Program-made: the position numbers and the translations under genes | Notes under the pieces: generated by a model | Databases searched by the model: none | Told to the model about the DNA's origin: nothing | What the model saw: the letters and a program-made list of their open reading frames with translations, nothing else | Part shown: piece by piece, positions 1 to 31,130 of the stretch | Layout: every line of letters begins with the position of its first letter | Numbering within the stretch: position 1 is the first letter of the stretch | From: Flavobacterium crassostreae | GTDB taxonomy: Bacteria > Bacteroidota > Bacteroidia > Flavobacteriales > Flavobacteriaceae | Reading direction: 5' to 3' | Assembly: GCF_001831475.1 (NCBI RefSeq) | Contig: NZ_CP017688.1 | Location: 2,728,001-2,792,000, forward strand | Length of the DNA: 64,000 nt

Positions 1-1
1 A

Positions 2-775
2 GAAATTGATGCTGACAAAATTTCAAAAATCGACATTTCTTCTGCAACACCAATTGTTGAAACTGTTATTACAGGAGTACTAGAACCGACAGGAATTGTA
101 ATTGACGGCGACTATTTATATATTGCTGAATATAATGCTCAAAAAATTTCAAAATTAAACTTAACAACTTTAGTGAAGACAGATTATTTAATCGGTTTAT
201 CTGGACCAACAGGTTTAGTAATAAGCAATAATATTCTTTATTTTTCTGAATTTGACACAAATGTTATTTCAAAAGTTGACTTAACGGCAGCTGTACCTGT
301 AGTTACTCAAATGGGCAGTGGATTTAATGAACCCGCGTTTTTGAATTTAGTGGGGTCTGAATTATATTTTGCTAATTATGGGTCAGGAAAATTATCAAAA
401 ATGAATATTACAAATCAAATAGTTAGTGACGTTGCTACTAGTTTAGGTGGTGTTTATGGTTTAGTAAACAACGGAGCATTTCTTTTTCTATCTCAACGAG
501 ACACAAATAAAATATCAAAAATAAGTTTAACAAATTTATCAACGGCAAATTTTGATATTGAAAATCAAGTTTCAATTTATCCAAATCCAACATCAAACTA
601 TTTAACTTTGCAAAATGTTTTGAAAAATAGTGAAATCACAATTTCTGATTTTAGCGGTAGAATTATCAAGCAATTTAAATATCAAAAACCTACTATTGAC
701 TTACAAAGCTTTGAAAAAGGTATTTACTTTTTGACAATAGATAAAAATAAAACAATAAAATTTATAAAGAACTAA
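2..775 (+). CDS. Secreted beta-propeller-like repeat protein with T9SS sorting domain (5' partial)
   Basis: The reading frame is already open at base 2, so the gene starts before the window; the GTG at 173 is internal. The visible part holds degenerate repeats of about 45 residues with the core 'KISKIDL/KISKLNL' and 'PTGLVI..LYFSE', like NHL or YncE-type propeller blades. The last 75 residues ('SIYPNPTSNYLTL' to 'GIYFLTI...KFIKN') match the type A C-terminal sorting domain of Bacteroidota type IX secretion, so the protein should be exported through T9SS. It is the cargo of the first, partial cassette; its stop lies 10 bp before attC1. Ligand or role unknown. Confidence 0.8.
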   Translation, partial: EIDADKISKIDISSATPIVETVITGVLEPTGIVIDGDYLYIAEYNAQKISKLNLTTLVKTDYLIGLSGPTGLVISNNILYFSEFDTNVISKVDLTAAVPVVTQMGSGFNEPAFLNLVGSELYFANYGSGKLSKMNITNQIVSDVATSLGGVYGLVNNGAFLFLSQRDTNKISKISLTNLSTANFDIENQVSIYPNPTSNYLTLQNVLKNSEITISDFSGRIIKQFKYQKPTIDLQSFEKGIYFLTIDKNKTIKFIKN

Positions 776-785
776 AAATTTACTT

Positions 786-920
786 CTGCCAACAGCAGTT
801 TGGCAAAATGGCGGGTTCAGTGCTAAATTGAACATTCGGTTTTCAAATGAAGTTTTGTGCTAATTTGAAAGTAAGTGCTTCTAAATCCGCCACTTCGCCA
901 AGCTGCAAATCGTTGTAGGC
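786..920 (+). other. attC: attC site 1, end of cassette 1
   Basis: R'' CTGCCAAC at 786-793; R' GTTGTAGGC at 912-920. Inner arms GTTTGGCAAAATGGCGG and CCGCCACTTCGCCAAGC are complementary with a few bulges, the form of a folded integron recombination site. The R' does not fit the RRRY consensus well, and cassette 2 does not end with its complement. Confidence 0.8.
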
Positions 921-1530
921 AAGTTGCGCCCAAATCGCGCATAATTAACCTTTTAATTAAGAAAAAACTGTTTATAATTTTAAGGTTTAGAGTTCTTAAT
1001 TCCTAAAAAAGTGTATAAAAAACTGGATTCTTAAAATCCAAAAAAAAGGTTATATTGTTTAAAGAGTATTGCTTAAAAACAGAAAATAATCCAAAACAAA
1101 ATAATGACCTAAAACAGCGTGATTTGTGGTTTACAGAGTGATTTTTTAAAACAATAAAATCCCCAAGTTGAAGCGCAAACGGCATTTTATCAGCTTTACG
1201 GAAAAAATTAAATGAGTATAATTTGTTCCTTACAAAGTGATTATTCAAATAAGAAAAACCTCGGATTTAAATCTTAAAAAAAATCAACAAGGAAAATTAA
1301 AAAGCTGAAATAGAGTGATTTGTTTTTTAAAGAGTGAGAATCTAAATAAAAAAATCTCGAATTTAAAGTAGGAATTTGTTTGTGTTTTTAGGTTTGTGAA
1401 GAAAAAACCAGCCCATAACAATCGTCTTAACTAATTTGCAGATTCTGTGGAATTACCGTTTTTAATTGTATATTCGTTATGAAGAAAAACATCCGTATCC
1501 AAAGCCTGCAAACTAGTTAAGGCGGGAACG
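913..1530 (+). repeat. Cassette 2, ORF-less family A (variant left end)
   Basis: A 618-bp unit with no credible ORF. From about 950 on it is nearly identical to cassette 3. Its first about 40 bp (TTGTAGGCAAGTTGCGCC...) differ from the TTATGGGC start of the other family A members, and its end box GCCCATAAC is not complementary to that start, so the left end has been replaced or has drifted. Confidence 0.7.
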
Positions 1531-1538
1531 TTATGGGC
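1411..1538 (+). other. attC: attC site 2
   Basis: R'' GCCCATAAC 1411-1419, R' GTTATGGGC 1530-1538, perfect complements. Arms CGTCTTAACTAATTTGCAG and CTGCAAACTAGTTAAGGCG pair around a variable centre of about 60 bp. Confidence 0.88.
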
Positions 1539-2147
1539 TAGTTTTGCCCATTTTGCGCAGATAATGCCGTTTTTATAAGAAAAAACTGTTTATAATTTTA
1601 AGGTTTGGAGTTCTAAATTCTTAAAAAAAGCGCAAAAAAATGGATTCTTAAAATCCAAAAAAAATATTTTGTTGTTTAAAGAGTGTTATTTAAAAATAGA
1701 AAATAATCCAAAACAAAATAATGACATAAAACAGCGTGATTTGTGGTTTGCAGAGTGATTTTTTCAAACAATAAAATCCCCAAGTTGAAGCGCAAACGGC
1801 ATTTTATCAGCTTTACGGAAAAAATTAAATGAGTATAATTTGTTCCTTACAAAGTGATTATTCAAATAAGAAAAACCTCGGATTTAAATCTTAAAAAAAA
1901 TCAACAAGGAAAATTAAAAAGCTGAAATAGAGTGATTTGTTTTTTAAAGAGTGAGAATCTAAATAAAAAAATCTCGAATTTAAAGTAGGAATTTGTTTGT
2001 GTTTTTAGGTTTGTGAAGAAAAAACCAGCCCATAACAATCGTCTTAACTAATTTGCAGATTCTGTGGAATTACCGTTTTTAATTGTATATTCGTTATGAA
2101 GAAAAACATCCGTATCCAAAGCCTGCAAACTAGTTAAGGCGGGAACG
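1531..2147 (+). repeat. Cassette 3, ORF-less family A
   Basis: A 617-bp cassette that starts TTATGGGC and ends GCCCATAAC. It carries three spaced copies of a module with the core GTGATTTGT..TTTA.AGAGTGA (around 1735, 1835 and 1935), each followed by a run such as AAATAAGAAAAACCTCG. There is no start codon with a credible frame on either strand. Promoter, small RNA or purely structural roles are all possible. Confidence 0.8.
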
Positions 2148-2155
2148 TTATGGGC
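2028..2155 (+). other. attC: attC site 3
   Basis: R'' GCCCATAAC 2028-2036, R' GTTATGGGC 2147-2155. Same arm type as site 2 and nearly identical to it over the whole length. Confidence 0.88.
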
Positions 2156-2767
2156 TAGTTTTGCCCATTTTGCGCAGATAAAGCCGTTTTTATAAGAAAA
2201 AACTGTTTATAATTTTAAAGTTTAGGGTTCTTAATTCCTAAAAAAACGCAAAATAACTGGATTTTTAAAAGCCAAAAAAAAATATTTTGTTGTTTAAAGA
2301 ATATTATTTCCAACCTGAAAATAATTCAAAACAAAATAATGACATAAAACAGCGTGATTTGCGGTTTACAGAGTGATTTTTCAAACAAGAAAATCCCAAA
2401 AGTTGAAGCGCAAACGGCATTTTATCCGCTTTACGAAAAAATTAAATGAGTGTAATTTGTGTTTTACAAAGTGATTTTACAAATAAGAAAAATCTCGGAT
2501 TTAAATCTTAAAACAGGATTTTACCAGCGTTACGTGAAAAATTAAAAAAGTGTGATTTGTTCTTTACAAAGTGAGTATCTAAATAAAAAAATCTCGAATT
2601 TAAAGCCAAAAAATATTTGCGTTTTTAGGTTTGTGAAGAAAAAACCAGCCCATAACAATCGTCTTAACTAATTTGCAGATTCTGTGGAATTATCGTTTTT
2701 AATTGTATATTCGTTTCGAAGAAAAACATCCGTATCATAAGCCTGCAAACTAGTTAAGGCGGGAACG
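2148..2767 (+). repeat. Cassette 4, ORF-less family A (diverged)
   Basis: A 620-bp unit of the same plan as cassette 3 with scattered substitutions. The repeated module is clearest here: ATTTTATCCGCTTTACG, then GTGTAATTTGT, then TTTACAAAGTGATTTT and ATCTCGGATTTAAATC, repeated about 100 bp later with small changes. Conservation of the module while other bases drift argues for function. Confidence 0.78.
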
Positions 2768-2776
2768 TTATGTGGC
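2648..2776 (+). other. attC: attC site 4
   Basis: R'' GCCCATAAC 2648-2656; the junction R' GTTATGTGGC 2767-2776 belongs to the next cassette. Arms are of the CTTAACTAATTTGCAG type. Confidence 0.87.
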
Positions 2777-3376
2777 ATAGCTCCGAAAATTCATTTTTAA
2801 AATAGAAAATTAACGTTTTTAAGTATATATTTTTTAAAAGTAATGTAAGTCAAAACTCCCCTCCTTTTCTCTTAGAAACGGTTTTTTATCACTGAAAAAT
2901 CGGTCGAATTAGTATAATTTTTCACCAAATAATATTTAAGGAAAATAAAGTATAAAAGGAATAAATGTTGCGATTTAAAGCCGAAAAAATCAATCAAAAT
3001 AAGTTGCATAAAAGAGAGTGACCAGAAATTTAAGCCCAAAAGCGAAAAAGGTTATACGGAATTGAAACGGATTTTTTTTGCGACGTCAAAAGTGTATAAT
3101 GGTATTTTCAGAGTGTTTATTTTACAAAATAAAATCTTTAATTTTATAAGAAAAACTACTCAATAATGTGTTTTTTAAATGGAAAATGTTTCTGTTTTTA
3201 AAGATAATTCCCGCAAATAAAAACGAGATAGAAGTACTTTGTGGCTATTGCTACGCCACATAACACACGTCTCAAGCAATTTGCAGATTCTGTGGAATTA
3301 CCGTTTTTAATTGTATATTCGTAATGAAGAAAATAATCGCATCCAAAAGCTGCAAACTGCATGAGGCGCGAAGACG
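2768..3376 (+). repeat. Cassette 5, ORF-less family B
   Basis: A 609-bp unit that starts TTATGTGGCATAGCTCCG and ends GCTACGCCACATAAC. Conserved landmarks shared with six other cassettes: CTCTTAGAAACGG (2869), GTTGCATAAAAGAGAGTG (3002) and GATTTTTTTTGCGACGTC (3069). No ORF; the minus-strand frames that cross its right end are shadows of the attC. Confidence 0.8.
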
Positions 3377-3382
3377 TTAGCC
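3255..3382 (+). other. attC: attC site 5
   Basis: R'' GCCACATAAC 3255-3264, R' GTTAGCC 3376-3382. Arms CGTCTCAAGCAATTTGCAG and CTGCAAACTGCATGAGGCG pair. Confidence 0.87.
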
Positions 3383-3418
3383 GTCAGTTTACCCAAAATC
3401 ACGCAAAAAAAGTCGAAA

Positions 3419-4042
3419 ATGATAATTACAATTGATGGAAAATCTTGCACAGGTAAAAGTACAATAGCTCTTTTATTATCAAAAAAAATTAACTTTTCAT
3501 ATATAAATAGTGGACTTCTGTATAGAGCAATCACTCACGAAATTTTGAAAAATAAAATAGATTTAATTAATTTCAAAAATAAAGAAGAACAAATAAAATT
3601 ATTAATAAATCACTATAATTTTGATCTACAAAAAATAAACGAAAATATTTCAATTTTTAAAACTATTGAAATCAGTAAGTTTGGAACAGAGATTGCAAAA
3701 TTGCAATTTGTAAGAGACAAAGTGAATGATTATATTTCAGAAATAAATTCAAAATATAAAAATATCATAATTGAGGGTAGAGATATCGGAACAAAAGTTT
3801 TCCCAAATGCAGATTTTAAATTTTTCTTTATTGCAGATATAGATATACGAGCAAATAGATTGGCTTTAGAAAGAAATTCAAAAGAAATAAATAAAATTAA
3901 AATAGAAATCCAAAAAAGAGATCTTGAAGATGAAAATAGAAAAAATTCGCCTTTAAAAAAAGCAATTAGTGCAATATTAATTGATACATCTAAATTAACA
4001 ATTGAAGAAACGGTAAATATATTAGAACAACATTTAAAATGA
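3419..4042 (+). CDS. Cytidylate kinase family protein
   Basis: A 207-residue P-loop nucleoside monophosphate kinase of the CMP kinase family. Visible motifs: the P-loop with GKST at 12-15, NSGLLYRAIT at 30-39 (NMP-binding region), GRDIGT at 120-125, and a C-terminal RDLEDENRKNSPL segment (lid region). The family transfers phosphate from ATP to CMP or dCMP. A second, housekeeping copy is expected elsewhere, so this looks like a specialised paralogue. It is the first gene of cassette 6 (ATG 42 bp after the R' box) and overlaps the radical SAM gene by 4 bp, so the two are probably co-translated. It may act on a precursor or product of that enzyme (inference). Confidence 0.85.
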   Translation: MIITIDGKSCTGKSTIALLLSKKINFSYINSGLLYRAITHEILKNKIDLINFKNKEEQIKLLINHYNFDLQKINENISIFKTIEISKFGTEIAKLQFVRDKVNDYISEINSKYKNIIIEGRDIGTKVFPNADFKFFFIADIDIRANRLALERNSKEINKIKIEIQKRDLEDENRKNSPLKKAISAILIDTSKLTIEETVNILEQHLK

Positions 4043-5304
4043 ATAAACTGAACAATTTAGTAATTTTATTACAACCACCAAACTTATGTAAAACATTCAC
4101 AAGGTCAGGTTCGGTTTATCCACCATTAGGGCTTTGTCAATTGGCAGCAGTAGACAAAAATGATGTAATAGAAGTATTTGATGCAGAAGGAGAAGGGTTA
4201 AACATTGAAGAAACTCAAACAAAATTAATACGAAAAAAACCTAAAATTATTGGTCTTTCAGCAACATCATTCACTCTTGTAATTGTTGAAAATTGGGCAA
4301 AGTTTGCTAAATCAATTGGTGCAATTGTTATAGTTGGTGGTCCACATCCAAGCTTAAGTCCAAGAGATACTTTTGACAAATGTCCAAGCGTAAAATATAT
4401 TGTTAGAGGTGAAGGAGAAGTAATTATTAATGAATTGATTGAAAACCTCTTAAACAATAAAAATAATTTAAATTTAAGTGGAGTTTGTGAAAGATTAAAT
4501 GATAAATATCATATTTCTGATGAAATTTTGAAAGTAGAAAATTTCGAAAATTTACCTTTTCCAAATCTTTCAAAAATGCCAATCAAAAATTATTGGTGTC
4601 CAGACTCTAAAAGTAGTCCGATGGTTACAATGATGACAACAAGAGGATGCCCATATAAATGTGGTTTTTGCAGTAGTCCAGCTGTAATGGGAAAAAAAAT
4701 AAGAAGTTGGAGTGTTGATAAAGTAATAAAAGAACTGAAATATTTACACTTTGAATTAGGTGTAAATGAAATTTCATTTGTTGATGATGTATTTACAATT
4801 AATCGTAAAAGAACAATTAATTTATGTAAAGAGATAATAAAAAATAAAATAAAAATTACTTGGTTTTGTAATGCTCGAGCCGATCATATAGACGAGGAAA
4901 TGGCAAAAGTTATGAGTGAAGCAGGTTGTCATCAAACTTATTTAGGTTTTGAAAGTGGGGCGCAAATAATTTTAGATAATGTCCAAAAAGGCACAACCAT
5001 AGAAAAGTTAGTTAATGGCGCAAAAATATTGAAAGAAAACAACATATCAAGAAGTATAGGCTTTGTTTTAGGATTACCTGGTGAAACAGATGAAACAGTA
5101 ATTCAAAGTATAGAACTAGCTAAAGTATTAAAACCTGAACGTCTACAATTCACTAGATTTACACCGCTAGTTGGCTCACCATTAGAAAACTACTCGTATG
5201 AACAGAATGGTTTTCATACAAAAGGAGAAGATATTGTAGGTAGATGGGTTAAATTTGCATACGAAAGTTGCGAGAATGATAATTGGGGTAAAGAAAGTTG
5301 GTAG
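4039..5304 (+). CDS. Cobalamin-type radical SAM enzyme
   Basis: 421 residues. Residues 1-140 look like a B12-binding Rossmann domain (SATSFT, then VGGPHPSLSP at 99-108), but the usual D-x-H-x-x-G cobalt ligand is replaced by DAEGEG at 48-53, so any cobalamin would lack the His ligand. Residues about 195-400 form the radical SAM barrel with C204, C208 and C211 in the CxxxCxxC [4Fe-4S] motif. The usual 'GFESG' (SAM-binding) and 'GLPGET' segments follow. Known relatives methylate or rearrange unactivated carbons; OxsB, for example, contracts the deoxyribose ring of a nucleotide. Being paired with a CMP kinase suggests a nucleotide substrate, which is inference only. Confidence 0.85.
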   Translation: MNKLNNLVILLQPPNLCKTFTRSGSVYPPLGLCQLAAVDKNDVIEVFDAEGEGLNIEETQTKLIRKKPKIIGLSATSFTLVIVENWAKFAKSIGAIVIVGGPHPSLSPRDTFDKCPSVKYIVRGEGEVIINELIENLLNNKNNLNLSGVCERLNDKYHISDEILKVENFENLPFPNLSKMPIKNYWCPDSKSSPMVTMMTTRGCPYKCGFCSSPAVMGKKIRSWSVDKVIKELKYLHFELGVNEISFVDDVFTINRKRTINLCKEIIKNKIKITWFCNARADHIDEEMAKVMSEAGCHQTYLGFESGAQIILDNVQKGTTIEKLVNGAKILKENNISRSIGFVLGLPGETDETVIQSIELAKVLKPERLQFTRFTPLVGSPLENYSYEQNGFHTKGEDIVGRWVKFAYESCENDNWGKESW

Positions 5305-5314
5305 AAAAAACCGA

Positions 5315-5450
5315 ACGGCTAACAGCGGTTTCAAGAAATGGCGAAAAATGTGCTAAATTGATTTATTTCTTCCGCAAGAAATATTATCTTAGAAGAAAAT
5401 ATGCGGTTACGAAATTCCCCACTTCTTGAAGCCACGAAACGTTATGTGGC
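5315..5450 (+). other. attC: attC site 6, end of cassette 6
   Basis: R'' ACGGCTAAC 5315-5323 is the exact complement of GTTAGCCGT at the start of cassette 6 (3376). Junction R' GTTATGTGGC 5441-5450. Arms GTTTCAAGAAATGGCG and CCACTTCTTGAAGCC. Confidence 0.87.
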
Positions 5451-6049
5451 ATAGCTCCGAAAATTCGTTTTTTAAATAGAAAATTAACGTTTTTAAGAAT
5501 GTATTTTTTAAAAGTAATGTAAGTCAAAACTCCCCTCCTTTTCTCTTAGAAACGGCTTTTTATTGCCGAAAAATCGGGCGAATTAGTATAATTTTTCACC
5601 AAATAATATTTAAGGAAAATAAAGTATAAAAGGAATAAATGTTGCAATTTAAAACAGAAAAAATCAATCAAAATAAGTTGCATAAAAGAGAGTGAACAGG
5701 AATTTAAGCCCAAAAGAGAAAAAGGTTAGACGCAATTGAAACGGATTTTTTTTGCGACGTCAAAAGTGTGTGATGATATTTTCAGAGTGTTTATTTTACG
5801 AAAGAAAATCTTTAATTTTATAAGAAAAACCACTCAATAATGTGTTTTTTAAATGGAAAATGTTTCTGTTTTTAAAGAGAATTTCCGCAAAAAAAGCAAG
5901 ATAGAAGTACTTTGTGGCTATTGCTACGCCACATAACACACGTCTCAAGCAATTTGCAGATTCGGTGGAATTACCGTTTTTAATTGTATATTCGTAATGA
6001 AGAAAATAATCGTATCCAAAATCTGCAAACTGCATGAGGCGCGAAGACG
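5442..6049 (+). repeat. Cassette 7, ORF-less family B
   Basis: A 608-bp family B unit (TTATGTGGC start, GCCACATAAC end). It differs from cassette 5 by scattered substitutions, for example GTGAACAGG for GTGACCAGA in the central block. Confidence 0.8.
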
Positions 6050-6058
6050 TTATGTGGC
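5928..6058 (+). other. attC: attC site 7
   Basis: R'' GCCACATAAC 5928-5937, R' GTTATGTGGC 6049-6058. Arms as in site 5 with ATCTGCAAACTG on the right. Two family B cassettes are adjacent here. Confidence 0.87.
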
Positions 6059-6657
6059 ATAGCTCCGAAAATTCGTTTTTAAAATAGAAAATTAACGTTT
6101 TTAAGCATCTATTTTTTAAAAGTAATGTAAGTCAAAACTCCTCTCCTATTCTCTTAGAAACGGCTTTTTATTGCCGAAAATCGGGCGAATTAGTATAATT
6201 TTTCACTAAATAATATTTAAGGAAAATAAAGTATAAAAGGAATAAATGTTGCAATTTAAAACCGAAAAAATCAATCAAAATAAGTTGTATAAAAGAGAGT
6301 GACCAGAAATTTAAGCCCAAAAGAGAAAAAGGTTAGACGGAATTGAAACGGATTTTTTTTGCGACGTCAAAAGTGTGTAATGATATTTTCAGAGTGTTTA
6401 TTTTATAAAAAATAATCTTTAATTTTATAAGAAAAACTACTCAATAATGTATTTTTTAAATGGAAAATGTTTCTCTTTTTAAAGAGAATTCCCGCCAAAA
6501 AAAGCAAGATAGAAGTACTTTGTGGCTATTGCTACGCCACATAACACACGTCTCAAGCAATTTGCAGATTCTGTGGAATTACCGTTTTTAATTGTATATT
6601 CGTAAAGAATAAAATAATCGCATCCAAAAGCTGCAAACTGCATGAGGCGCGAGGACG
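6050..6657 (+). repeat. Cassette 8, ORF-less family B
   Basis: A 608-bp unit directly following cassette 7. The conserved central block with GCGACGTCAAAAGTGTG lies at about 6360. No ORF. Confidence 0.8.
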
Positions 6658-6665
6658 TTGGTAGC
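6536..6665 (+). other. attC: attC site 8
   Basis: R'' GCCACATAAC 6536-6545, R' GTTGGTAGC 6657-6665. Arms are of the CTCAAGCAATTTGCAG type. Confidence 0.87.
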
Positions 6666-6681
6666 AATTAAACATAAAACA

Positions 6682-7404: not shown

Positions 7405-7406
7405 CT

Positions 7407-7534
7407 GCTACCAACAGCCGTTTGGCAAGATTGGGGCTTTAGTGGAATTAACGGTTTTTATCATATCTTCGTTTAGTCGAAAATACACGGTTTAAAAATC
7501 CCCAACCTCGCCAAGCGACGGGACGTTATGTGGC
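7407..7534 (+). other. attC: attC site 9, end of cassette 9
   Basis: R'' GCTACCAAC 7407-7415 is the exact complement of GTTGGTAGC opening cassette 9. Junction R' GTTATGTGGC 7525-7534. Arms GTTTGGCAAGATTGGGG and CCCAACCTCGCCAAGC. Confidence 0.88.
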
Positions 7535-8133
7535 ATAGCTCCGAAAATTCGTTTTTAAAATAGAAAATTAACGTTTTTAAGCATATATTTTTTAAAAGTA
7601 ATGTAAGTTAAAACCTCCCTCCTATTCTCTTAGAAACGGCTTTTTATTGCCGAAAATCGGGCGAATTAGTATAATTTTTCACCAAATAATATTTAAGGAA
7701 AATAAAGTATAAAAGGAATAAATGTTGCGATTTAAAACCGAAAAAATCAATCAAAATAAGTTGCATAAAAGAGAGTGAACAGGAATTTAAGCCCAAAAGC
7801 GAAAAAGGTTTGATGGGATTGAAACGGATTTTTTTTGCGACGTCAAAAGTGTGTGATGATATTTTCAGAGTGTTTATTTTACAAAAGAAAATCTTTAATT
7901 TTATAAGAAAAACTACTCAATAATGTGTTTTTTAAATGGAAAATGTTTCTGTTTTTAAAGAGAATTCCTGTCAAAAAAAGCAAGATAGAAGTACTTTGTG
8001 GCTATTGCTACGCCACATAACACACGTCTCAAGCAATTTGCAGATTCTGTGGAATTACCGTTTTTAATTGTATATTCGTTACGCAGAAAATAATCGCATC
8101 CAAAAGCTGCAAACTGCATGAGGCGCGAAGACG
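7526..8133 (+). repeat. Cassette 10, ORF-less family B
   Basis: A 608-bp unit, closest to cassette 16: both have GTAAGTTAAAACCTCCC near position 80 and AAGGTTTGATGG in the middle. Confidence 0.8.
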
Positions 8134-24546: not shown

Positions 24547-24557
24547 AAAAAGAGCCA

Positions 24558-24685
24558 GCCACTAACACACGTCTTGCGCCATTTGCGAATTTAGTGGAAT
24601 TATCGTTTTTTATCGTATTTTCGTTTAGCCGAAAATACTCGTCTTCGTAAGTCGCAAACGGCGCAAGGCGCGAGAACGTTAGCTG
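24558..24685 (+). other. attC: attC site 25, end of cassette 25
   Basis: R'' GCCACTAAC 24558-24566 complements GTTAGTGGC. R' GTTAGCTG 24678-24685. Arms as in site 12. Confidence 0.89.
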
Positions 24686-24703
24686 TTATTTTAGAAAACC
24701 GAG

Positions 24704-25903
24704 GGAGAATTCAATAACCTAGCGCAACAAATGATAAATTTTATCTTTGTTGAATTATGGAAAAAAAGTACAAGCGATTATCCTTAGAAGAACGTATTAT
24801 AATTGAGACATTACTTAAGGAAAATAGGACCGAAAACTACATTGGAAAGCAATTAAATCGAAATCGATCTACCATAACCCGAGAAGTAAATCTTTGGGTA
24901 AGAAACCCAACCGATATTTACAAGGCTGATTTAGCACATTGGTATGCTTTAGAAACCAATAAAAACAAAAGAACTCAAGACAAAATAAATTCATATGCTA
25001 AACTTAAGATATTCGTTTACAGAAGCTTATTAAAAGGAACGAGCCCTGAATTAATGGCTGGCCAAATCAAGTTATTATATCCAAATGACCCTATCATGTC
25101 TATTTCTTATGAATCTATATATAAGCATATTTATAGGTCTAGGCAGTCTACTTTAGGCAAAAAACTAATCAAACTTCTCCCCTATCATCATCACAAAAGA
25201 CGAGACAAAAGAAAATTTGGTAAAAAAAGAACACGGATCAAAGACCAAGTCAGTATTGACCTAAGACCTATTGAAATTGAAAAACGTCTGGAAGCAGGGC
25301 ACTTAGAAGGTGATTTGATGATTGGTGTCGGACACAAAAGTGCCATTGGAACCATCGTAGATAGAAAAACTAGATATGTTATTATTGTACCAATCAGCAA
25401 CAGAAAATCAAAAACAGTAACTCATGAATTTGCAAAGCTGTTAAATAAACATCCTCAATACCTCAGAAAAACAATGACTTACGATAACGGAATGGAAATG
25501 GCTAATCATAAATGGCTCTCTGAAAAGACTGGAATGGATATTTATTTTGCACATCCTTACTCCTCATGGGAAAGAGGCACAAATAAAAATACTAATGGAC
25601 TAATTAGAAGGTTTTTACCCAAAGGAACCGACTTTAACACAATAACTACTGAAGAGCTGAAACGAATAGAAAACAACCTAAATAACAGACCTAGAAAGGT
25701 TTTAGGTTTCAAAACACCTAATGAAATGAGGAACCAAGAAATTAATAAAATCAGTAACACACAGGCTTAATTTTGGAAATAACTTTTGGCTCCTTAAAAA
25801 GCCAAAAAAGTTATTCTAAAATTAAGCACATTATCTAAGAAAAATACTAAATTTGATTTATTAAAAATAACTAACGATGTTGCGCTAGACCCTTGAATCC
25901 GCC
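24704..25903 (+). mobile_element. IS30-family element, copy 2 (1200 bp)
   Basis: Same ends and length as copy 1, with only a handful of substitutions. Flanking trinucleotides are GAG on the left and CAG on the right, so there is no target duplication. The left flank starts with GTTAGCTG, but the cassette to the right ends with ACGCACAAC, which would pair with GTTGTGCGT. The element therefore joins two different cassettes. Confidence 0.87.
24757..25770 (+). CDS. IS30-family transposase, copy 2, catalytic Glu changed to Lys
   Basis: 337 residues, nearly identical to the copy 1 protein. Residue 277, the third acidic residue of the DD(33)E triad, is Lys here (AAA at 25585-25587; motif GTNKNTNG). 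A second change is P-to-A in the DKINSYAKLK segment. The protein should fold but be unable to catalyse transposition, though it might still bind the ends. Confidence 0.9.
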   Translation: MEKKYKRLSLEERIIIETLLKENRTENYIGKQLNRNRSTITREVNLWVRNPTDIYKADLAHWYALETNKNKRTQDKINSYAKLKIFVYRSLLKGTSPELMAGQIKLLYPNDPIMSISYESIYKHIYRSRQSTLGKKLIKLLPYHHHKRRDKRKFGKKRTRIKDQVSIDLRPIEIEKRLEAGHLEGDLMIGVGHKSAIGTIVDRKTRYVIIVPISNRKSKTVTHEFAKLLNKHPQYLRKTMTYDNGMEMANHKWLSEKTGMDIYFAHPYSSWERGTNKNTNGLIRRFLPKGTDFNTITTEELKRIENNLNNRPRKVLGFKTPNEMRNQEINKISNTQA

Positions 25904-25932
25904 CAGAAATCCGAATAAAAATTGATTACAAA

Positions 25933-26535
25933 ATGAATATTGAAAGAAAAGAATTAATCGAACTTTGTGATAAATTTCTAAATAGGGAAATTACGAAATC
26001 CGAATTGGAATTCTACGCTTTTAATGCGATTATGTCTGACGAATTCGATTGGGACGATGACGATAATGTAATTTCTGAAACAATATTTGATTGGGATAAC
26101 GAAATAATTAATTTTCCAATAAACGAAGTTAATATGAAACTTTGGAAAAAGCGATTAGAAACTAATGTTGACGAATTATTAGAACATAATAATTGGAATG
26201 TTCACATAGAAAAGCAGAAAGATATTTGTGAAAAGTACAAATCGAAATGGAAACCAATTAGCCGAAACTTGAAAGTTGGAATATCTGAAAACTTAAATCT
26301 TGAAAAACTGAACGGATTAAGACATAAAACAGAAAAAGGAAAAGTTTGTTGGTATATTTGGAGCGGAGATTATTCCGAAAACGACGATTTTTTTAAACCA
26401 ATTTGTGCTGAACATTTACTGCAAAGAAATCCAAAAATAATAAAATATTTAGGATTAGATGATGGATTTAGATTCTTAATAACAGAAAGTGGATATGAAG
26501 ATGTTTGGTTTGACGAAAATTTATTAAAATCATAA
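25933..26535 (+). CDS. Immunity-protein-like cytoplasmic protein (cassette 26)
   Basis: 200 residues, acidic, without signal peptide. The C-terminal part (VCWYIWSGDYSENDDFFKPICAEHLL... KYLGLDDGFRFLI... YEDVWFDENLL) resembles DUF2185/Imm33-type immunity domains, which bind and neutralise secreted toxins. The N-terminal half is a helical acidic region (DEFDWDDDDN). No toxin gene is adjacent, so it could be an orphan immunity gene; moderate confidence. The leader before its ATG (CAGAAATCCGAA..AAAATTGATTAC) is almost the same as that of cassette 15. Confidence 0.5.
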   Translation: MNIERKELIELCDKFLNREITKSELEFYAFNAIMSDEFDWDDDDNVISETIFDWDNEIINFPINEVNMKLWKKRLETNVDELLEHNNWNVHIEKQKDICEKYKSKWKPISRNLKVGISENLNLEKLNGLRHKTEKGKVCWYIWSGDYSENDDFFKPICAEHLLQRNPKIIKYLGLDDGFRFLITESGYEDVWFDENLLKS

Positions 26536-26550
26536 AAAAAGAAAAAGCGA

Positions 26551-26685
26551 ACGCACAACAACCGTTTGGCAAGATTGCGAATTTTGTGGTAAATTCACGT
26601 TTACGTTTCGCAAGAAATTTTATCTTTAACAGAAAATAATCGGTTACGAAGTTCGCAACCTCGCCAAGCGGCAAAACGTTAGCAG
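26551..26685 (+). other. attC: attC site 26
   Basis: R'' ACGCACAAC 26551-26559, R' GTTAGCAG 26678-26685. Arms CGTTTGGCAAGATTGCGAA and TTCGCAACCTCGCCAAGCG. Its R'' does not match the GTTAGCTG that opens the present cassette (see IS30 copy 2). Confidence 0.86.
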
Positions 26686-26766
26686 AAATACGCTAAAAAA
26701 TGAGGAAATTTAGAATAAATTATATAACTCAAATTTGTTTTTATTACTTTTATAAAAAATAGAAAA

Positions 26767-27069
26767 ATGAATTTAATTGAAAGTCATATAAAAGACATTT
26801 TAAACTTATGTAAATCACATAAAGTAAAATCATTGTATGCTTTTGGTTCAGTTTTAACTGATAAATTTAATTCTGAAAGCGACGTTGATTTAATCGTTGA
26901 TTTCCAACAATTAGATGTTCTCGATTATGGAGATAATTATTATGATTTAAAATTTTCTTTAGAGAATATTTTTAAACGAAGTGTTGATTTACTTGAAGAA
27001 AAAGCAATTAAAAATCCTTTTTTTAGAAAAACTATAAATCAAAAAAAACAGTTGATTTATGGACAATAA
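26767..27069 (+). CDS. mntA: MntA-like nucleotidyltransferase antitoxin
   Basis: 100 residues. Minimal nucleotidyltransferase domain with the motif GS(27-28)-x10-DxD (D39, D41): AFGSVLTDKFNSESDVDLIV. In HepT/MntA type VII systems this protein adds AMP groups to a Tyr of the HEPN toxin and so neutralises it. It overlaps the HEPN gene by 11 bp, in the usual order seen for some of these pairs. Lies in cassette 27. Confidence 0.88.
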   Translation: MNLIESHIKDILNLCKSHKVKSLYAFGSVLTDKFNSESDVDLIVDFQQLDVLDYGDNYYDLKFSLENIFKRSVDLLEEKAIKNPFFRKTINQKKQLIYGQ

Positions 27070-27397
27070 TATTAAAACTTGGCTTTATGATATTTTGAGC
27101 TCAATCAATGAAATAGAAAGTTATTATATTGATACTCCTAAAATATTTGAGGGTTATCAAAACGATTTAAGAACAAAAAGAGCGGTTGAAAGAAATATCG
27201 AAATAATTGGAGAAGCTATGAATCGAATTCTGAAACTTGATAGCGAAATTGTAATCTCGAACTCAAGAAAAATTGTCGATGTAAGAAATAGAATTATTCA
27301 CGGTTATGATTCAGTTTCTGACGATGTAATTTGGGGAATAGTGATTAGAAATTTACCTGTTTTACAAAAAGAGGTAGAAGAATTACTGGGTGAATAA
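27059..27397 (+). CDS. hepT: HepT-like HEPN toxin
   Basis: 112 residues, DUF86-type HEPN domain. The RNase motif R-x4-H is R76 to H81 in VRNRIIHGYD, and the Tyr two residues after His (Y83) is the residue modified in characterised pairs. Predicted to cleave RNA when free of the antitoxin. Start overlaps mntA. Confidence 0.88.
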   Translation: MDNNIKTWLYDILSSINEIESYYIDTPKIFEGYQNDLRTKRAVERNIEIIGEAMNRILKLDSEIVISNSRKIVDVRNRIIHGYDSVSDDVIWGIVIRNLPVLQKEVEELLGE

Positions 27398-27403
27398 TAG
27401 TAC

Positions 27404-27532
27404 TTCTGCTAACAGCCATTTTGATATAGCTGGAATTTAGTGGAATTACCGTTTCGAATCAAGTTTTCGTTAAGCAGAAAATTTAGCGTTTATGAACTTC
27501 CAGCCATCTCAAACTGGCGACACGTTAGCAGT
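27404..27532 (+). other. attC: attC site 27, end of cassette 27
   Basis: R'' TTCTGCTAAC 27404-27413 complements GTTAGCAGAA. R' GTTAGCAGT 27524-27532. Arms as in site 19. Confidence 0.89.
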
Positions 27533-27545
27533 AATACGCCAAAAA

Positions 27546-27794
27546 ATGGAGAAAAACACATTAATTAAATTAAAAACTTTTCACGGAACTTTAAAACCGA
27601 CAAATAAAGTAAAAATTGGGGAAAATTATTGGAGATTAATTGGTGAAAAAGGCATAGTAGTTGAAATTGCTGATTTCAATCCGGAGAAAATTTTGGTAAT
27701 ATTTGAAAAAAATCTTGATGATTTTGATTTAGTAAACCATAATCCAATTAAGAATTCTTTATATATCGATAAAAAAGATCTGGACTTATATTAA
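27546..27794 (+). CDS. Small protein of unknown function (cassette 28, first gene)
   Basis: 82 residues from ATG 27546; a longer frame starting at 27492 would run through attC27. Beta-rich composition (TFHGTLKPTNKVKIGENYWRLIGEKGIVVEI), possibly a small SH3-like barrel. No family recognised. Its stop is followed at once by the attC scar at 27797. Confidence 0.6.
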   Translation: MEKNTLIKLKTFHGTLKPTNKVKIGENYWRLIGEKGIVVEIADFNPEKILVIFEKNLDDFDLVNHNPIKNSLYIDKKDLDLY

Positions 27795-27796
27795 TT

Positions 27797-27808
27797 TGCT
27801 AGCAGTAA
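27797..27808 (+). other. Probable scar of a deleted attC site
   Basis: TTGCTAGCAGTAA merges a cassette end (..TGCTA of a TGCTAAC R'') with a cassette start (TTAGCAGTAAT, as at 27525). The roughly 120 bp of attC arms that should lie between are missing, fusing two cassettes that both began with TTAGCAGTAAT.CG into cassette 28. Confidence 0.55.
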
Positions 27809-27841
27809 TGCGTTCGTAGAATCAGAAATTTAACGATCAAA

Positions 27842-28243
27842 ATGAAAGAAATTGAGAAAATATCTAACGAAAAAGGAAATTGGTTTATTGTAGAAATTAT
27901 TGAAAAACGTGAACCTGTTGAACGTAAAAAAGATAATGATTTACGCCGAGTTGTCACTTGGGGAAATTTTCATTTAATAAAAGCTGAAAATCCAAAGCTA
28001 GCCTATGAAAAAGCGGTTAAAATTGGAAAAGATGCAGAAATTAAATTTACTAACTCCGACAATATTGAAATGGAATATACTTTTGTTGGAATTGCAGATT
28101 TAATTCCAATCTATGACGATAATATTGAAGATGGATGCGAAATAATGTGGACAGATTATGGATCGATAAGTAATCAAAAAGCTGAAAAATTCGCACGTAC
28201 TGAAAAAGAAATTTTAGCAAATATTAAACTGAAAAACAAATAA
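27842..28243 (+). CDS. DUF4288-type protein (cassette 28, second gene)
   Basis: 133 residues. It starts EKGNWFIVEIIEKREPV and continues with VTWGNFHLIKAENPKLAYEKAVKIG..., FVGIADLIPIYD, the pattern of DUF4288 proteins, small cytoplasmic proteins often found near toxin or immunity loci and of unknown biochemical function. Its leader (TTAGCAGTAATG.G-like) shows it was once a separate cassette. Confidence 0.65.
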   Translation: MKEIEKISNEKGNWFIVEIIEKREPVERKKDNDLRRVVTWGNFHLIKAENPKLAYEKAVKIGKDAEIKFTNSDNIEMEYTFVGIADLIPIYDDNIEDGCEIMWTDYGSISNQKAEKFARTEKEILANIKLKNK

Positions 28244-28248
28244 GTACT

Positions 28249-28385
28249 ACTGCTAACAGCCATTTAGCAATATTGCGATTTTTGTGGTAAATTCACATTT
28301 ACGTTTCGCAAAAAGTTTTATCTTTAACGGAAAATAAACGGTCACGAAGTTCCCAACATCGCTAAGTGGCAAAACGTTACAGGGC
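28249..28385 (+). other. attC: attC site 28, end of cassette 28
   Basis: R'' ACTGCTAAC 28249-28257 complements GTTAGCAGT. Junction R' GTTACAGGGC 28376-28385. Confidence 0.88.
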
Positions 28386-28446
28386 ATAGCTCCGAATGTC
28401 GAGTCCTAAAATAGGTTGACTAAAACTTAAACACCTTTAGCAACCA

Positions 28447-28830
28447 ATGGAAACACCCGAAAATCAGCCCGTCCGAAGAAGAAACGGAAAACAAGTAAGT
28501 TTTGAATACAAACTTTCTGTAATTCAACAAATCAATAATGGACAAATTTCTTTAAATTACGCTTCTAAAAAATACGCTATTTCAAAAAGCACAATCGAAT
28601 ACTGGATGAAGAAACTAACCAATTACGAGCAAACCAATAAATCTATAAGTAAAGACGATGAAATTCGTTTGCTAAAAAATAAAATAGAAGATTTAGAGGG
28701 AATTAAAGCATTTCAACAAGAGGTAATCATTGAATTTGAGTCTGTTACTGGGGAGGAACTTTCAAAAAAGTACTTGCCCGATTGGTTAGCAAACGAAATT
28801 CAGAAAAAGAAGAAAAAGCTTTTAAAATAA
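28447..28830 (+). CDS. IS3-family OrfA (helix-turn-helix)
   Basis: 127 residues. HTH region SFEYKLSVIQQINNGQISLNYASKKYAISKSTIEYWMKKL, then a leucine-zipper-like helix (IRLLKNKIEDLEGIKAF). It ends in a Lys-rich tail (KKKKKLLK) coded by an A-rich run, where a -1 frameshift into OrfB is expected for this family. Confidence 0.88.
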   Translation: METPENQPVRRRNGKQVSFEYKLSVIQQINNGQISLNYASKKYAISKSTIEYWMKKLTNYEQTNKSISKDDEIRLLKNKIEDLEGIKAFQQEVIIEFESVTGEELSKKYLPDWLANEIQKKKKKLLK

Positions 28831-29690
28831 AATGGATTTACGAATCAATCGGGATTAGTAAACAAGCTTATTATCAAAGAATTGAATCCTATAAAATCAA
28901 AGAAATACGCAATAACATTGTGATTGATTTGGTCTTGGAAATACGCGAAAGAATGCCAGGAACAGGAACAAGAAAACTCTTAGATCATTTAAAAGAAAAG
29001 TTTGTTCAACATAACATAAAAATGGGCAGAGATGCGCTGTTTGATTTGCTCAGAGTTAGAGGTTTATTCATAAAGAGAACCAAACGTTTTCACATCACAA
29101 CGGACTCTAAACACTATTTTTACAAGTCTCCTAACCTACTCTATAACTTAGCAATAACACACGCTGAACAAGTTTTTGTTGCAGATATAACTTATGTAAA
29201 AACCGATGCAGGACACGCTTATTTAGCCTTGGTAACAGATGCCTATTCTCGAAAAATAATGGGTTGGTCATTAGAGAACAATATGCGGGTAGAAATGGTT
29301 AAAAACGCACTTAATATGGCTTATAAAAATTGTATTTTTAACCATAAAAACATAATTCATCATAGCGATAGAGGCATACAATATTGCTGTCCAGACCATA
29401 GTGAATTTGCTGAAAACAAGGGGTTTATATTAAGTACAACGCAAAAATATGACCCTTACGAAAATGCAATTGCAGAGCGTATTAACGGAATTTTAAAATA
29501 TGAATTTGGACTAAAAAAAACAATTAAATCCATTCAAATAGCAAAAGCAATGACCAAAGAAGCTGTAGAAATTTACAATAACGAAAGAACTCATTGGAGT
29601 TTAGACTTAAAAACACCACAATCTGTTCATTTACAATACAATAAACAGAAAAATAAATCTTATAAAAAGACAAAAAAAATTGCTATTTAA
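28782..29690 (+). CDS. IS3-family OrfB (DDE integrase domain)
   Basis: 302 residues, overlapping OrfA by 49 bp. Catalytic triad regions: VADITYV (D), HHSDRGIQY (D) and NAIAERINGILKYEF (E). Probably made mainly as an OrfAB fusion by frameshifting in the AAAAAG runs around 28803-28820. All catalytic residues look intact. Confidence 0.9.
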   Translation: MVSKRNSEKEEKAFKIKWIYESIGISKQAYYQRIESYKIKEIRNNIVIDLVLEIRERMPGTGTRKLLDHLKEKFVQHNIKMGRDALFDLLRVRGLFIKRTKRFHITTDSKHYFYKSPNLLYNLAITHAEQVFVADITYVKTDAGHAYLALVTDAYSRKIMGWSLENNMRVEMVKNALNMAYKNCIFNHKNIIHHSDRGIQYCCPDHSEFAENKGFILSTTQKYDPYENAIAERINGILKYEFGLKKTIKSIQIAKAMTKEAVEIYNNERTHWSLDLKTPQSVHLQYNKQKNKSYKKTKKIAI

Positions 29691-30010
29691 ACACCGATTT
29701 ACTACTATTGTAATGCTATGTGAGGATGGAAACGAGCAATACTGAGGAGCAACTCGAAGAGTGCTAAAATCATAGTCAAAGAAAATGAAGATGGCATTTT
29801 CAAAATGCCACTTCTTTAATCTTCATTTTTTTTGAAGAAAAAACTAAAAAAACCTAAACCAAAATTGGCAAACGGATTTGGTCATTTTTAACCTAATTTT
29901 TAACAAAAAAAAAGGTCAACATAGGCTAGGACAAGACGGGTTATTTTTAAATTGAAAAACACAGGAATTTTAACACGCTACTAACCATACACAAACCGTT
30001 AGCAACAATT

Positions 30011-30415
30011 ATGAAGAACTATAGTATTATAATAATTATTTTATTTTGGTTACAGACAAATGCACAAGGTGATCTTTCATCTAAACACTTTAAGTTCAAA
30101 GGCAAATTAGAAAAAAACACATTGTTGGAAACTTGTGGTAGTGAATACTCTAAAGAAATAGCAATAGTTTTAGAAATTACCATAACAAGTCCTGAAGATA
30201 TTAAAAGATTTGGAGAAAAAATTTATGTCGCTCAAATTTGTTATGAAATACCGGGAGAAGGTGTTTTTAACGGCAAAGAACATGACATAGAAATACGTGA
30301 TAAACAAATGTGGCAATGGAAAATTTCAATATTAAACCCTCAACTTTTTGAAAAAAATCGTGATAAAAAAGAATATTGGCTGGAAGATGTAAGTAGAAAA
30401 GTTACTATACATTAA
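30011..30415 (+). CDS. Small secreted protein (cassette 30)
   Basis: 134 residues. Signal peptide MKNYSIIIIILFWLQTNAQ, then a beta-rich body with two Cys (ETCGSEY, QICYEIPGEG) that may form a disulfide. Ends LEDVSRKVTIH. Starts 13 bp after a GTTAGCAAC R' box (29998-30006), but the attC arms before that box are missing. Family unknown. Confidence 0.6.
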   Translation: MKNYSIIIIILFWLQTNAQGDLSSKHFKFKGKLEKNTLLETCGSEYSKEIAIVLEITITSPEDIKRFGEKIYVAQICYEIPGEGVFNGKEHDIEIRDKQMWQWKISILNPQLFEKNRDKKEYWLEDVSRKVTIH

Positions 30416-30426
30416 CAATAATAACT

Positions 30427-30562
30427 GTTGCAAACAGTCGTTTATCGCAATTGCGCATTTTGTGATAAGTTCACGTTCACATTTCGCAAGAAATTTATCT
30501 TTAACGGAAAATAACCGTCTCCAAAGCCTGCAAACTGCTTGAGGCGCAAGAAAGTTAGTACC
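30427..30562 (+). other. attC: attC site 29 (mosaic)
   Basis: R''-like GTTGCAAAC 30427-30435 (one base off the complement of GTTAGCAAC), R' GTTAGTACC 30554-30562. The left arm (CGTTTATCGCAATTGCGCA) matches the site 26 type and the right arm (GCCTGCAAACTGCTTGAGGCG) the site 5 type, so the two arms do not pair well. Probably a recombinant or decaying site. Confidence 0.7.
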
Positions 30563-30567
30563 ATGGA

Positions 30568-31032
30568 ATACTTCTTGGTTTTTCATCCTTACTTTTGACT
30601 ACATCTGTTTTTTCACAAAGTGAAAAGTCAAAAACTGAAATTGTTGAAAAGAAATCCAATAATAATCTAAATCAAAAAAGCTCTATAGAATTTATCGAGT
30701 TCAATAGAAAAATATTGGAAAAACTAAAAAATAATGATTAGAAAAGCTATCCTATTCTAGGAATTAATATTGTTCAAAAAGGCACGAAAAACAATGTGCA
30801 ATCAAATATTGATGGAGACTTTTTAATCAAAATACCTATTGAGGATTTCAAAGATAGCGTTGTTCTCATATTTAGTTATATTGTTATGGAAACAAAAGAA
30901 GTTGAAGTTTATAAAACTAAAAGCGACCTAAAAATAGAAATGATTTTAAGTGATGCATTATTGGGTTCGATAATAATTCTCAAAACCAAGAAAAAAAATA
31001 TTTTTACAAGAGTTGGAAATCTATTCCAATAA
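30568..31032 (+). pseudogene. Remnant of a secreted CarboxypepD-reg-like protein (cassette 31)
   Basis: In one frame: a signal-peptide-like start without ATG (ILLGFSSLLLTTSVFSQSEKS from 30568), an amber stop at 30739, then YPILGINIVQKGTKNNVQSNIDGDFLI, the typical CarboxypepD-reg-like/TonB-plug sequence of Bacteroidota surface proteins, ending at 31032. The nonsense codon and missing start mark it as broken. Confidence 0.65.
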
Positions 31033-31040
31033 ATAGTACC

Positions 31041-31130
31041 AGCCGCAAACAGCAACTATAACAGATTTGGACATTGGGCTTAATGGAAAGATTGTTTTGT
31101 ATTTGGGGAAATTGGCTAAATTCATCTAAC
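31041..31130 (+). other. Degenerate attC remnant (right end of array)
   Basis: GCAAACAGCAACTATAACAG then ATTTGGACATTGGGCTTAAT and TTTTGTATTTGGGGAAATTGG follow the left two thirds of the site 18/site 24 type. The right arm and R' box are gone. Confidence 0.55.

What the first reader, a model, noticed from the sequence alone, without database searches (positions are those of the whole stretch)
1..31130. Integron-type cassette array of 29 attC sites in a Bacteroidota genome, without an integrase in view
Sites of 125-137 bp have R''/R' boxes ending in AAC and starting with GTT and complementary arms; single or coupled genes lie between them, nearly all in one direction. In at least 20 cassettes the first bases are the reverse complement of the last, as expected for cassettes that excise as circles. 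Integron arrays are best known from Proteobacteria; to my knowledge arrays of this size in Flavobacteriaceae are little described. No tyrosine recombinase with an integron-type insert is in the window.
Basis: partly seen in the sequence, partly recalled or inferred. Interest (0 to 1): 0.92.

Follow-up and report, generated by a model that had tools for sequence, protein, structure and literature searches.

The report
Integron-like cassette bank with new recombinase
A bacterium of the Flavobacterium kind stores 172 exchangeable gene cassettes, six percent of its chromosome, in two arrays that look like an integron, but the enzyme at their head lacks the part that defines integron integrases, and the same system recurs in many Bacteroidota.

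Summary
Confirmed and enlarged. The window holds 29 full attC-like sites plus a cut-off terminal one; they are half of a 58-site array that starts 29 kb upstream. A second, 114-site array lies 0.5 Mb away, directly behind a tyrosine recombinase gene (P0001). Both arrays begin at similar 106-bp attI-like sequences (94 of 106 bases alike). Of 172 cassettes delimited, 152 have a start complementary to their own end, usually with an A.C mismatch after seven variable bases. Eleven near-full-length duplicate pairs of coding cassettes exist; in nine the whole unit matches at 98.7-100% while the flanks differ, three of them across the two arrays: units have moved. Site arms covary. The recombinase, attI and polarity signature recur in Flavobacterium and other Bacteroidota (199 signature pairs, 0 reversed, in 584 kb of chosen loci); 15 canonical IntI loci of the same phylum (291 kb) show 3 in both orientations. 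The recombinase lacks the ~41-residue IntI-specific insert (spacing 64-65 against 106 residues) and has an N-terminal, possibly HARP-like, domain instead. It works like an integron on sequence evidence but fails IntI's defining test: an unrecognised, perhaps independently evolved, integron class. Activity is not shown; published Riemerella transformation data fit it.

The parts
1..30556 (+). part of the orphan cassette array that lies in the window (array = genome 2699014-2758556, 58 cassettes; window starts at genome 2728001)
791..914 (+). attC-like site 1
1417..1532 (+). attC-like site 2
2034..2149 (+). attC-like site 3
2654..2769 (+). attC-like site 4
3262..3378 (+). attC-like site 5
5321..5443 (+). 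attC-like site 6
5935..6051 (+). attC-like site 7
6543..6659 (+). attC-like site 8
7413..7527 (+). attC-like site 9
8019..8135 (+). attC-like site 10
9668..9791 (+). attC-like site 11
10508..10625 (+). attC-like site 12
12476..12599 (+). attC-like site 13
13093..13209 (+). attC-like site 14
13841..13956 (+). attC-like site 15
14449..14565 (+). attC-like site 16
15070..15185 (+). attC-like site 17
17184..17307 (+). attC-like site 18
17955..18070 (+). attC-like site 19
18763..18878 (+). attC-like site 20
19372..19488 (+). attC-like site 21
19993..20107 (+). attC-like site 22
20884..20999 (+). attC-like site 23
22101..22224 (+). attC-like site 24
24564..24680 (+). attC-like site 25
26557..26680 (+). 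attC-like site 26
27411..27526 (+). attC-like site 27
28255..28378 (+). attC-like site 28
30433..30556 (+). attC-like site 29
31048..31130 (+). cut-off terminal attC-like site (left part only; right end approximate); end of the array
   Evidence: (family D19)
1530..2036 (+). non-coding cassette, family GTTATGGGCT (others in the window: 2147-2656, 14563-15072, 19486-19995)
2767..3264 (+). non-coding cassette, family GTTATGTGGC (others: 5441-5937, 6049-6545, 7525-8021, 13954-14451; sister arm GTTACAGGGC: 12597-13095, 18876-19374)
3376..5323 (+). cassette: cytidylate-kinase-like gene and B12-binding radical SAM gene
6657..7415 (+). cassette with a 240-aa ORF (from ATG); 100% identical over 868 bp, site included, to cassette 62 of the other array (genome 2244694)
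8133..9670 (+). cassette: S41-type peptidase, here split over two ORFs; a copy in the other array (genome 2271598) has one 502-aa ORF
9789..10510 (+). cassette with a 218-aa ORF; 100% copy at genome 2720014
10623..12478 (+). cassette with a transposase gene (IS30-type by recall) and a small NMN-transporter-like ORF
15183..17186 (+). cassette: rhodanese gene (reverse), LysR-type regulator, GNAT acetyltransferase
17305..17957 (+). cassette: ParE-type toxin with upstream partner ORF; 99.7% copy at genome 2708621
20997..22103 (+). cassette: PD-T7-1-like defence gene (339 bits)
22222..24566 (+). cassette: HAD/phosphoribosyltransferase gene and DprA-like gene (ShosTA/PsyrTA-like pair)
26678..27413 (+). 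cassette: nucleotidyltransferase/HepT-like pair
27524..28257 (+). cassette with two small genes (one DUF4288); 100% copy in the other array (genome 2246181)

Best explanation
This is a chromosomal cassette bank run by an integron-like recombination system that uses a different tyrosine recombinase from IntI. Inferred cycle: the recombinase P0001 (346 aa; N-terminal possibly HARP-like domain, SAM-like core-binding domain, tyrosine recombinase catalytic domain) is made from genome 2188970-2190010. A cassette excises as a circle by recombination between the sites on its two sides. In the circle its start arm (GTT + 7 variable bases + A + ~4) pairs with its own end arm, so that one strand, the bottom strand because the usual A.C mismatch is a T.G wobble there, folds into a long hairpin. 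The folded strand is recombined with attI, just behind the recombinase gene, at or within GTT, so new cassettes enter in one orientation. A promoter just behind the recombinase gene's stop codon probably drives the first cassettes. The window's array grew at a second copy of attI without a recombinase gene and would be served in trans. Shown from sequence: sites, arms, polarity, moved units, attI, similar attI of both arrays, recurrence in relatives. Inferred: circles, single-strand reaction, the recombinase as the agent, promoter activity.
For: 172 cassettes in two arrays, 152 with >=6 bp own start/end complementarity; in these the eighth base is A at the start and its top-strand partner at the end is C in 132, G in 19, T in 1. 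Nine of eleven duplicate pairs match over the whole unit with different flanks. Hairpin covariation. Both arrays start at similar attI-like sequences, 94 of 106 bases. Recombinase directly upstream of attI and array in the own genome and in relatives. Signature pairs in recombinase loci: family 128 and genus 71, reversed 0 and 0; 15 canonical IntI loci 0 and 3. Named loci: pairs downstream of the recombinase in 21 of 80, upstream in 0 of 80. Free-circle form folds better on the bottom strand in 148 of 152. The residues that I take as catalytic (recalled) are invariant or nearly so in 30 aligned relatives. attI repeats covary. Published: in Riemerella anatipestifer a gene with 27 bp 5' and 140 bp 3' inserts without homology, attC-like fold suspected, the words recombinase and integrase absent from the main text (passages).
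Against: No recombination was observed. The integrated sites alone show hardly any strand preference (bottom lower in 98 of 172). Four of 20 family loci show no signature in chains (L044, L045, L054, L055), L044 with a 73%-identical recombinase; 18 of 20 have at least one signature pair anywhere. In 5 of 20 genus loci none was found. Between species no recent cassette transfer was seen: among the loci held only 4 had a match of 200+ nt, at 64-68% identity in the rows printed. P0001 itself has no HARP match at E<=1. Two of the 11 duplicate pairs are not clean: one covers 1668 of 1941/3281 bp, one is a tandem pair with different end sites. On the covariation tests, the number of pairs with double changes and of pair types is not, or only mildly, above shuffles.
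Confidence: 0.85

Rival explanations
1. An ordinary integron: the sites are canonical attC sites and are served by an IntI-type integrase that was overlooked or lost.
For: AAC/GTT boxes, hairpins, uniform orientation, attI next to a tyrosine recombinase; one of the names given to close homologues is 'site-specific tyrosine recombinase/integron integrase'.
Against: No protein over the integron cut-off in the own genome (one contig, 99.98% complete); the recombinase at the array head lacks the IntI insert (K-to-H spacing 64-65 in 78 of 79 family proteins, 106 in 19 of 20 IntI, one of each not measurable) and lies outside the 100/100 IntI branch; canonical R boxes in only 7 of 172 cassettes; the polarity signature is nearly absent from 15 IntI loci (3 pairs in 291 kb).
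Confidence: 0.08
2. A family of ~120-bp hairpin repeats (REP/MITE-like) that spread into intergenic gaps, with no cassette recombination.
For: Sites are similar, palindromic and intergenic; transposase genes of two types lie among them.
Against: Cassette starts match their own ends, not the ends of others (25 of 29 against 57 of 812); whole units are duplicated with different flanks; both arrays begin at attI, one of them beside a recombinase gene.
Confidence: 0.03
3. Each cassette is its own transposon with private terminal inverted repeats, moved as double-stranded DNA.
For: The first and last ~15 bp of a cassette are inverted repeats.
Against: 60 different arms in 172 cassettes; strict tandem order with a shared ~120-bp site; mostly uniform orientation (90 of 96); asymmetric mismatch. 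Transposase genes were seen in only three of the window's 29 cassettes.
Confidence: 0.03

Closest known systems
Sedentary chromosomal integrons (IntI, attI, attC); details of Vibrio superintegrons recalled
   Same: Tyrosine recombinase with attI at an array head, one-way cassettes each with an imperfect-palindrome site with AAC/GTT ends, own start/end complementarity, non-coding and defence-type cassettes.
   Different: Recombinase lacks the IntI-specific insert and has an extra N-terminal domain; arms extend to GTT+7+A+4 with a usual A.C mismatch and are rarely GTTRRRY; attI has three covarying copies of a species-specific repeat; the recombinase gene points the same way as the cassettes.
CALIN elements (clusters of attC lacking integrases; passages of PMC9668308 read)
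   Same: The window's array has many sites and no recombinase gene nearby.
   Different: It starts at a close copy of the attI at the recombinase, so it looks like a second platform rather than debris.
[not shown]
   Same: Core-binding and catalytic domains without the IntI insert.
   Different: N-terminal domain, attI and cassette array. Two further Xer-like genes of 299-305 aa exist in the genome, so chromosome-dimer resolution need not fall to this one (inference).
Homology-independent gene uptake in Riemerella anatipestifer (PMC13148043, passages read)
   Same: Unit = gene + short leader + ~140 bp attC-like tail; insertion without homology; same order of bacteria (recalled).
   Different: No recombinase, attI or array was named in the passages; whether that species carries this recombinase was not tested here.

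Membership tests
Integron (IntI type) | IntI-specific additional domain around patch III of the recombinase | tested here: not met
   K-to-H spacing 64-65 residues in 78 of 79 family proteins, 106 in 19 of 20 IntI (one of each not measurable); the IntI4 alignment skips 60 of its residues where P0001 has 18
Integron (IntI type) | Score over the curated integron-integrase cut-off (TIGR02249, 265 bits) | tested here: not met
   P0001 207 bits; 0 over cut-off in the own genome
Integron (IntI type) | attI site beside the recombinase gene, cassettes inserted in one orientation | tested here: met
   by sequence:
Integron (IntI type) | attC sites: imperfect palindromes with R''/R' boxes, arms that pair | tested here: met
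Integron (IntI type) | Canonical R boxes GTTRRRY / RYYYAAC (consensus recalled) | tested here: not met
   7 of 172 starts and 7 of 172 ends
Integron (IntI type) | Cassettes are mobile units | tested here: met
   nine duplicated whole cassettes with different flanks; by sequence only
Integron (IntI type) | Bottom-strand single-strand recombination by the recombinase | not testable with these tools
   folding bias only, 148 of 152 in circle form
Integron (IntI type) | Recombinase falls in the IntI clade | tested here: not met
   (19 IntI, 28 of 79 family proteins, 19 others): IntI plus one Calditrichia row form a 100/100 branch without the family; forks below have only moderate support (93/72, 86/87) and the program warns of long branches
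CALIN | Several attC sites without a nearby integrase, found by the IntegronFinder model | not tested
   that model was not available; own model R1 used
HARP domain (PF07443) at the N-terminus | Pfam match over the gathering score | tested here: inconclusive
   [not shown]

The most novel reading that the evidence does not exclude
Bacteroidota carry a second, independently evolved class of integron: a HARP-domain tyrosine recombinase that recognises folded cassette strands by its N-terminal fork-binding domain instead of IntI's inserted helix, with its own attI architecture (three covarying repeats) and a built-in strand mark (the A.C mismatch). It would be a main gene-exchange platform of this phylum and would explain homology-free uptake of genes by Riemerella and its kin.
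Probability: 0.5. Interest if true: 0.94.

Novelty: new variant of a known kind. Interest (0 to 1): 0.9.

Why it matters
Integrons are searched for by IntI's extra domain (passage of PMC9668308); the survey passage read names a single complete integron in Bacteroidetes proper, in Salinibacter (PMC9024848). Here a recombinase family without that domain heads arrays with integron anatomy. The recombinase is found in 55 of 150 sampled genomes of the genus (E 1e-90), and relatives of it in 127 of 199 of the family sample (1e-40; not all of these were checked for arrays). If it is active, folded-strand cassette capture works without the helix thought essential to it, which makes the origin of integrons testable, and it gives a concrete vehicle for defence and toxin-antitoxin genes and a candidate for the unexplained homology-free gene uptake of Riemerella.

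Tried and rejected
Rfam gave no match in the window and ARAGORN no tRNA. Shuffled-sequence controls for cassette chains are not empty (10-25 chained cassettes against 72 in the longest stretch; in L044, L045 and L055 no more than in shuffles), so I rely on the polarity count, which has no reversed case in the recombinase loci. Within-species strain comparison was not possible (one genome per species is held). Recent cassette sharing with other species was looked for in the loci held and not found; loci fetched later were not compared. A common chromosomal site was looked for: uvrA was found upstream of the recombinase in the own locus and in none of 48 others with about 1.5 kb or less upstream. 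Non-coding cassettes as promoter cassettes: not supported, 1 of 76 has the TTTG/TAnnTTTG signature forward and 2 reverse; as structured RNA: z -3.3 and -1.4 in the two folded, paired arms included, so unclear. VIA-align rows for the N-terminal domain list no HARP entry. How loci were chosen: the 20 family loci (19 genomes) were taken from the best matches with long contigs, five of them (L058-L062) also because the site model had matched nearby; the 20 genus loci (19 genomes) from the top of the list. Rows dropped: L175 (attI end not found by the script) and L183 (137 nt) were left out of the attI alignment, so 18 of 20 genus loci plus the two own copies were used; one main-array site without a clear GTT was skipped; one IntI row of 814 aa was left out of the tree. 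Print: four searches pairing integron with Bacteroidetes, Bacteroidota, Flavobacteriaceae or Flavobacterium and six others listed no paper on integrons or cassette arrays of Flavobacteriia by title or abstract start; several lists were cut (25 of 183, 20 of 247, 10 of 212 and 12 of 25 papers shown), only open-access PMC papers were searched and no preprints.
Full report
What is there. The window is genome 2728001-2792000 of a 3.03-Mb chromosome in one contig. It holds 29 full attC-like sites between 791 and 30556 and a cut-off one at about 31048. Reading upstream stretches shows that the array starts at genome 2699014; it has 58 sites. Searching the own genome with the integron-integrase profile gave no protein over the cut-off but a best match at 2189189. 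That gene, P0001, is followed at once by a second array, which runs to 2314505 with 114 sites. A covariance model of 30 sites lists 150 places in the genome, the number the tool scores; six of them lie outside the two arrays. Together the arrays cover 184 kb, 6.1% of the chromosome. The genus is probably Flavobacterium: a same-genus genome has a contig of the same length (100,844) as a homologue named Flavobacterium sp. UMI-01 (inference).

Cassette anatomy. A cassette runs from GTT to the AAC at the left end of its own site. Of 172 cassettes 152 have at least six further bases of the start complementary to the own end. In the window 25 of 29 reach four or more, against 57 of 812 non-own pairings, and no permutation of 20,000 reaches the observed sum. 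In the 152, the eighth base after GTT is A at the start; its partner at the end (top strand) is C in 132, G in 19, T in one; pairing then usually resumes for about four bases. The commonest case is an A.C mismatch on the top strand and a T.G wobble on the bottom strand. There are 60 different seven-base arms. Two non-coding families whose bodies are 93% alike differ in the arm at both ends together, which suggests that the arms are kept complementary by selection or by hairpin-templated repair (inference), while the mismatch is spared. 96 cassettes have an ORF of 80 aa or more, the longest one on the forward strand in 90 of them; 76 have none. The start codon lies a median 53 bases from GTT and the stop a median 17 bases from the AAC end.

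Sites. AAC to GTT is 114-127 bp, median 117, over both arrays. The thirteen consensus pairs all show changes on both sides; 106 cells against 36.5 +/- 4.4 in shuffles, at most 15 in slid registers; the number of pair types is not above shuffles (22 against 23.4). Taken alone, the integrated sites fold about equally on both strands (bottom lower in 98 of 172), well below shuffled sequence on average (-18.4 against -8.3 kcal/mol); with the own start joined on, as in a free circle, the bottom strand is lower in 148 of 152.

Moved units. The 96 coding cassettes (GTT to the base before the next GTT) were compared with each other; 11 near-full-length pairs were found. In nine of them the whole unit matches at 98.7-100% (five at 100%) while the 40-base flanks printed differ on both sides but for the last few site bases; three of the nine link the two arrays, among them window 6657-7524 and 27524-28375, both 100%. 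The crossover base inside (A)CGTT cannot be resolved because nearly all sites end in ACGTT; the attI copies end in AGTT, which puts it at or right of the G (inference).

attI. Both arrays begin with a 106-bp sequence, 94 of 106 bases alike, once right after the recombinase stop codon and once alone. The first cassettes of both arrays also match their own ends. In 14 of 20 genus loci an own-matching first cassette begins 100-104 bp behind the recombinase stop. An alignment of 20 attI copies (the two own ones and 18 of the 20 genus loci) shows a conserved end, mostly TATATACnAGTT, and three copies of a species-specific repeat, direct, inverted, direct. Both possible helices covary: 42 and 43 cells changed on both sides against 12.7 and 13.6 in shuffles, scores 0.83 against at most 0.20 in slid registers; the counts of pairs and of pair types are within shuffles. 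They could be recombinase-binding repeats, like those upstream in attI1 (recalled), or alternative hairpins. A TAnnTTTG box lies 10-15 bp behind the stop in 15 of 21 loci, with a TTTG box 17-23 bp upstream of such a box in 12 of 21, against 50 of 4200 random windows. That fits a Bacteroidetes promoter (consensus recalled) reading into the array; the upstream TTTG partly coincides with conserved codons of the recombinase, so the evidence is moderate.

Distribution. Matches to P0001 at 1e-40 occur in 127 of 199 genomes of the family sample; at 1e-90 in 55 of 150 genomes of the genus sample. Named close homologues are mostly Flavobacterium, some Lutibacter and one Paludibacter. Of 20 chosen family loci 16 show the polarity signature in cassette chains and 18 at least one signature pair. 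Over all pairs these loci have 128 of one polarity (119 distinct starts) and none reversed in 340 kb, the genus loci 71 (68 distinct starts) and none in 244 kb, with at least one in 15 of 20, while 15 canonical IntI loci of the same phylum, 291 kb, have 0 and 3. Among 80 named loci, 21 have signature pairs downstream of the recombinase, none upstream and none reversed; many had little downstream DNA. The 21 include Flavobacterium aciduliphilum, Algoriphagus ornithinivorans, Winogradskyella ursingii, Rufibacter, Aquiflexum and Zunongwangia. Of 395 phylum genomes 105 have an IntI over the cut-off; of the 107 genomes listed with a match all but one lie outside the own class. Relatives of the present recombinase (116 of 395 at 1e-70) include many of the own genus, family and class, but one search also takes in relatives that were not checked for arrays, so its tally is not a count of systems.

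Cargo. Window cassettes carry a PD-T7-1-like defence gene, a ShosTA/PsyrTA-like pair, a nucleotidyltransferase-HepT pair and a ParE toxin, plus a radical SAM/kinase pair, a LysR/GNAT/rhodanese cassette and genes without a family match.

Print. IntegronFinder 2.0 (passages) reports one complete integron for Bacteroidetes proper, in Salinibacter ruber. The archaeal integron paper (passages) says that IntegronFinder identifies IntI by the IntI-specific domain. The Natural History review (passage) lists Bacteroidota among phyla with integrons. The recombinase survey (passages) notes that the insertion is not fully conserved in its integron-like subgroup, so insert-less relatives as proteins are not new; arrays and attI for them are what I did not find. 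The Elizabethkingia paper (passages) ran IntegronFinder and found no integron in the outbreak strains. The Riemerella paper (passages) describes homology-free insertion of a gene with an attC-like 140-bp tail and calls the mechanism yet to be fully elucidated. I did not test whether Riemerella has the recombinase.

Verdict. It works like an integron on the sequence tests that I could make; it is not a member of the IntI family by the defining protein test. I call it a new variant of a known kind and leave open, at about even odds, that it is an independent class.

Noticed in passing
window 31259-37694 (-): Directly behind the array end lies a gene block with a 1232-aa DUF3584 (JetC-like, weak PADLOC match) gene and a DUF7281 gene, which may be a Wadjet-type defence system.
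   Followed up: partly
window 1530-2036, 2767-3264 and copies; 68 of 172 cassettes: Non-coding cassettes of almost constant length (496-514 bp) in a few families make up 40% of all cassettes; no ORF of 80 aa, hardly any promoter signature, function unknown.
   Followed up: partly
window 12597-13095 against 2767-3264: Two sets of cassettes with 93% identical bodies carry different seven-base arms, changed at both ends together.
   Followed up: partly
window 37862-37977 (-): A lone attC-like site on the opposite strand, 7 kb beyond the array.
   Followed up: no
window 10649-11838 and 24704-25900; also L011 near 9188-10201: A transposase element (IS30-type by recall) sits a few dozen bases inside cassette starts, three copies seen in this array, nearly identical.
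   Followed up: no
window 8161-9656 against genome 2271598: The S41 peptidase cassette exists as one ORF and as a split copy in the two arrays.
   Followed up: no
L090 (contig labelled Spirochaetota): A recombinase with a HARP match over threshold and one signature cassette pair downstream in a metagenome bin labelled Spirochaetota; wider spread or misbinning.
   Followed up: no
phylum sample: True IntI integrases are common (105 of 395 genomes) in this phylum as the genome set defines it, nearly all outside the own class.
   Followed up: no
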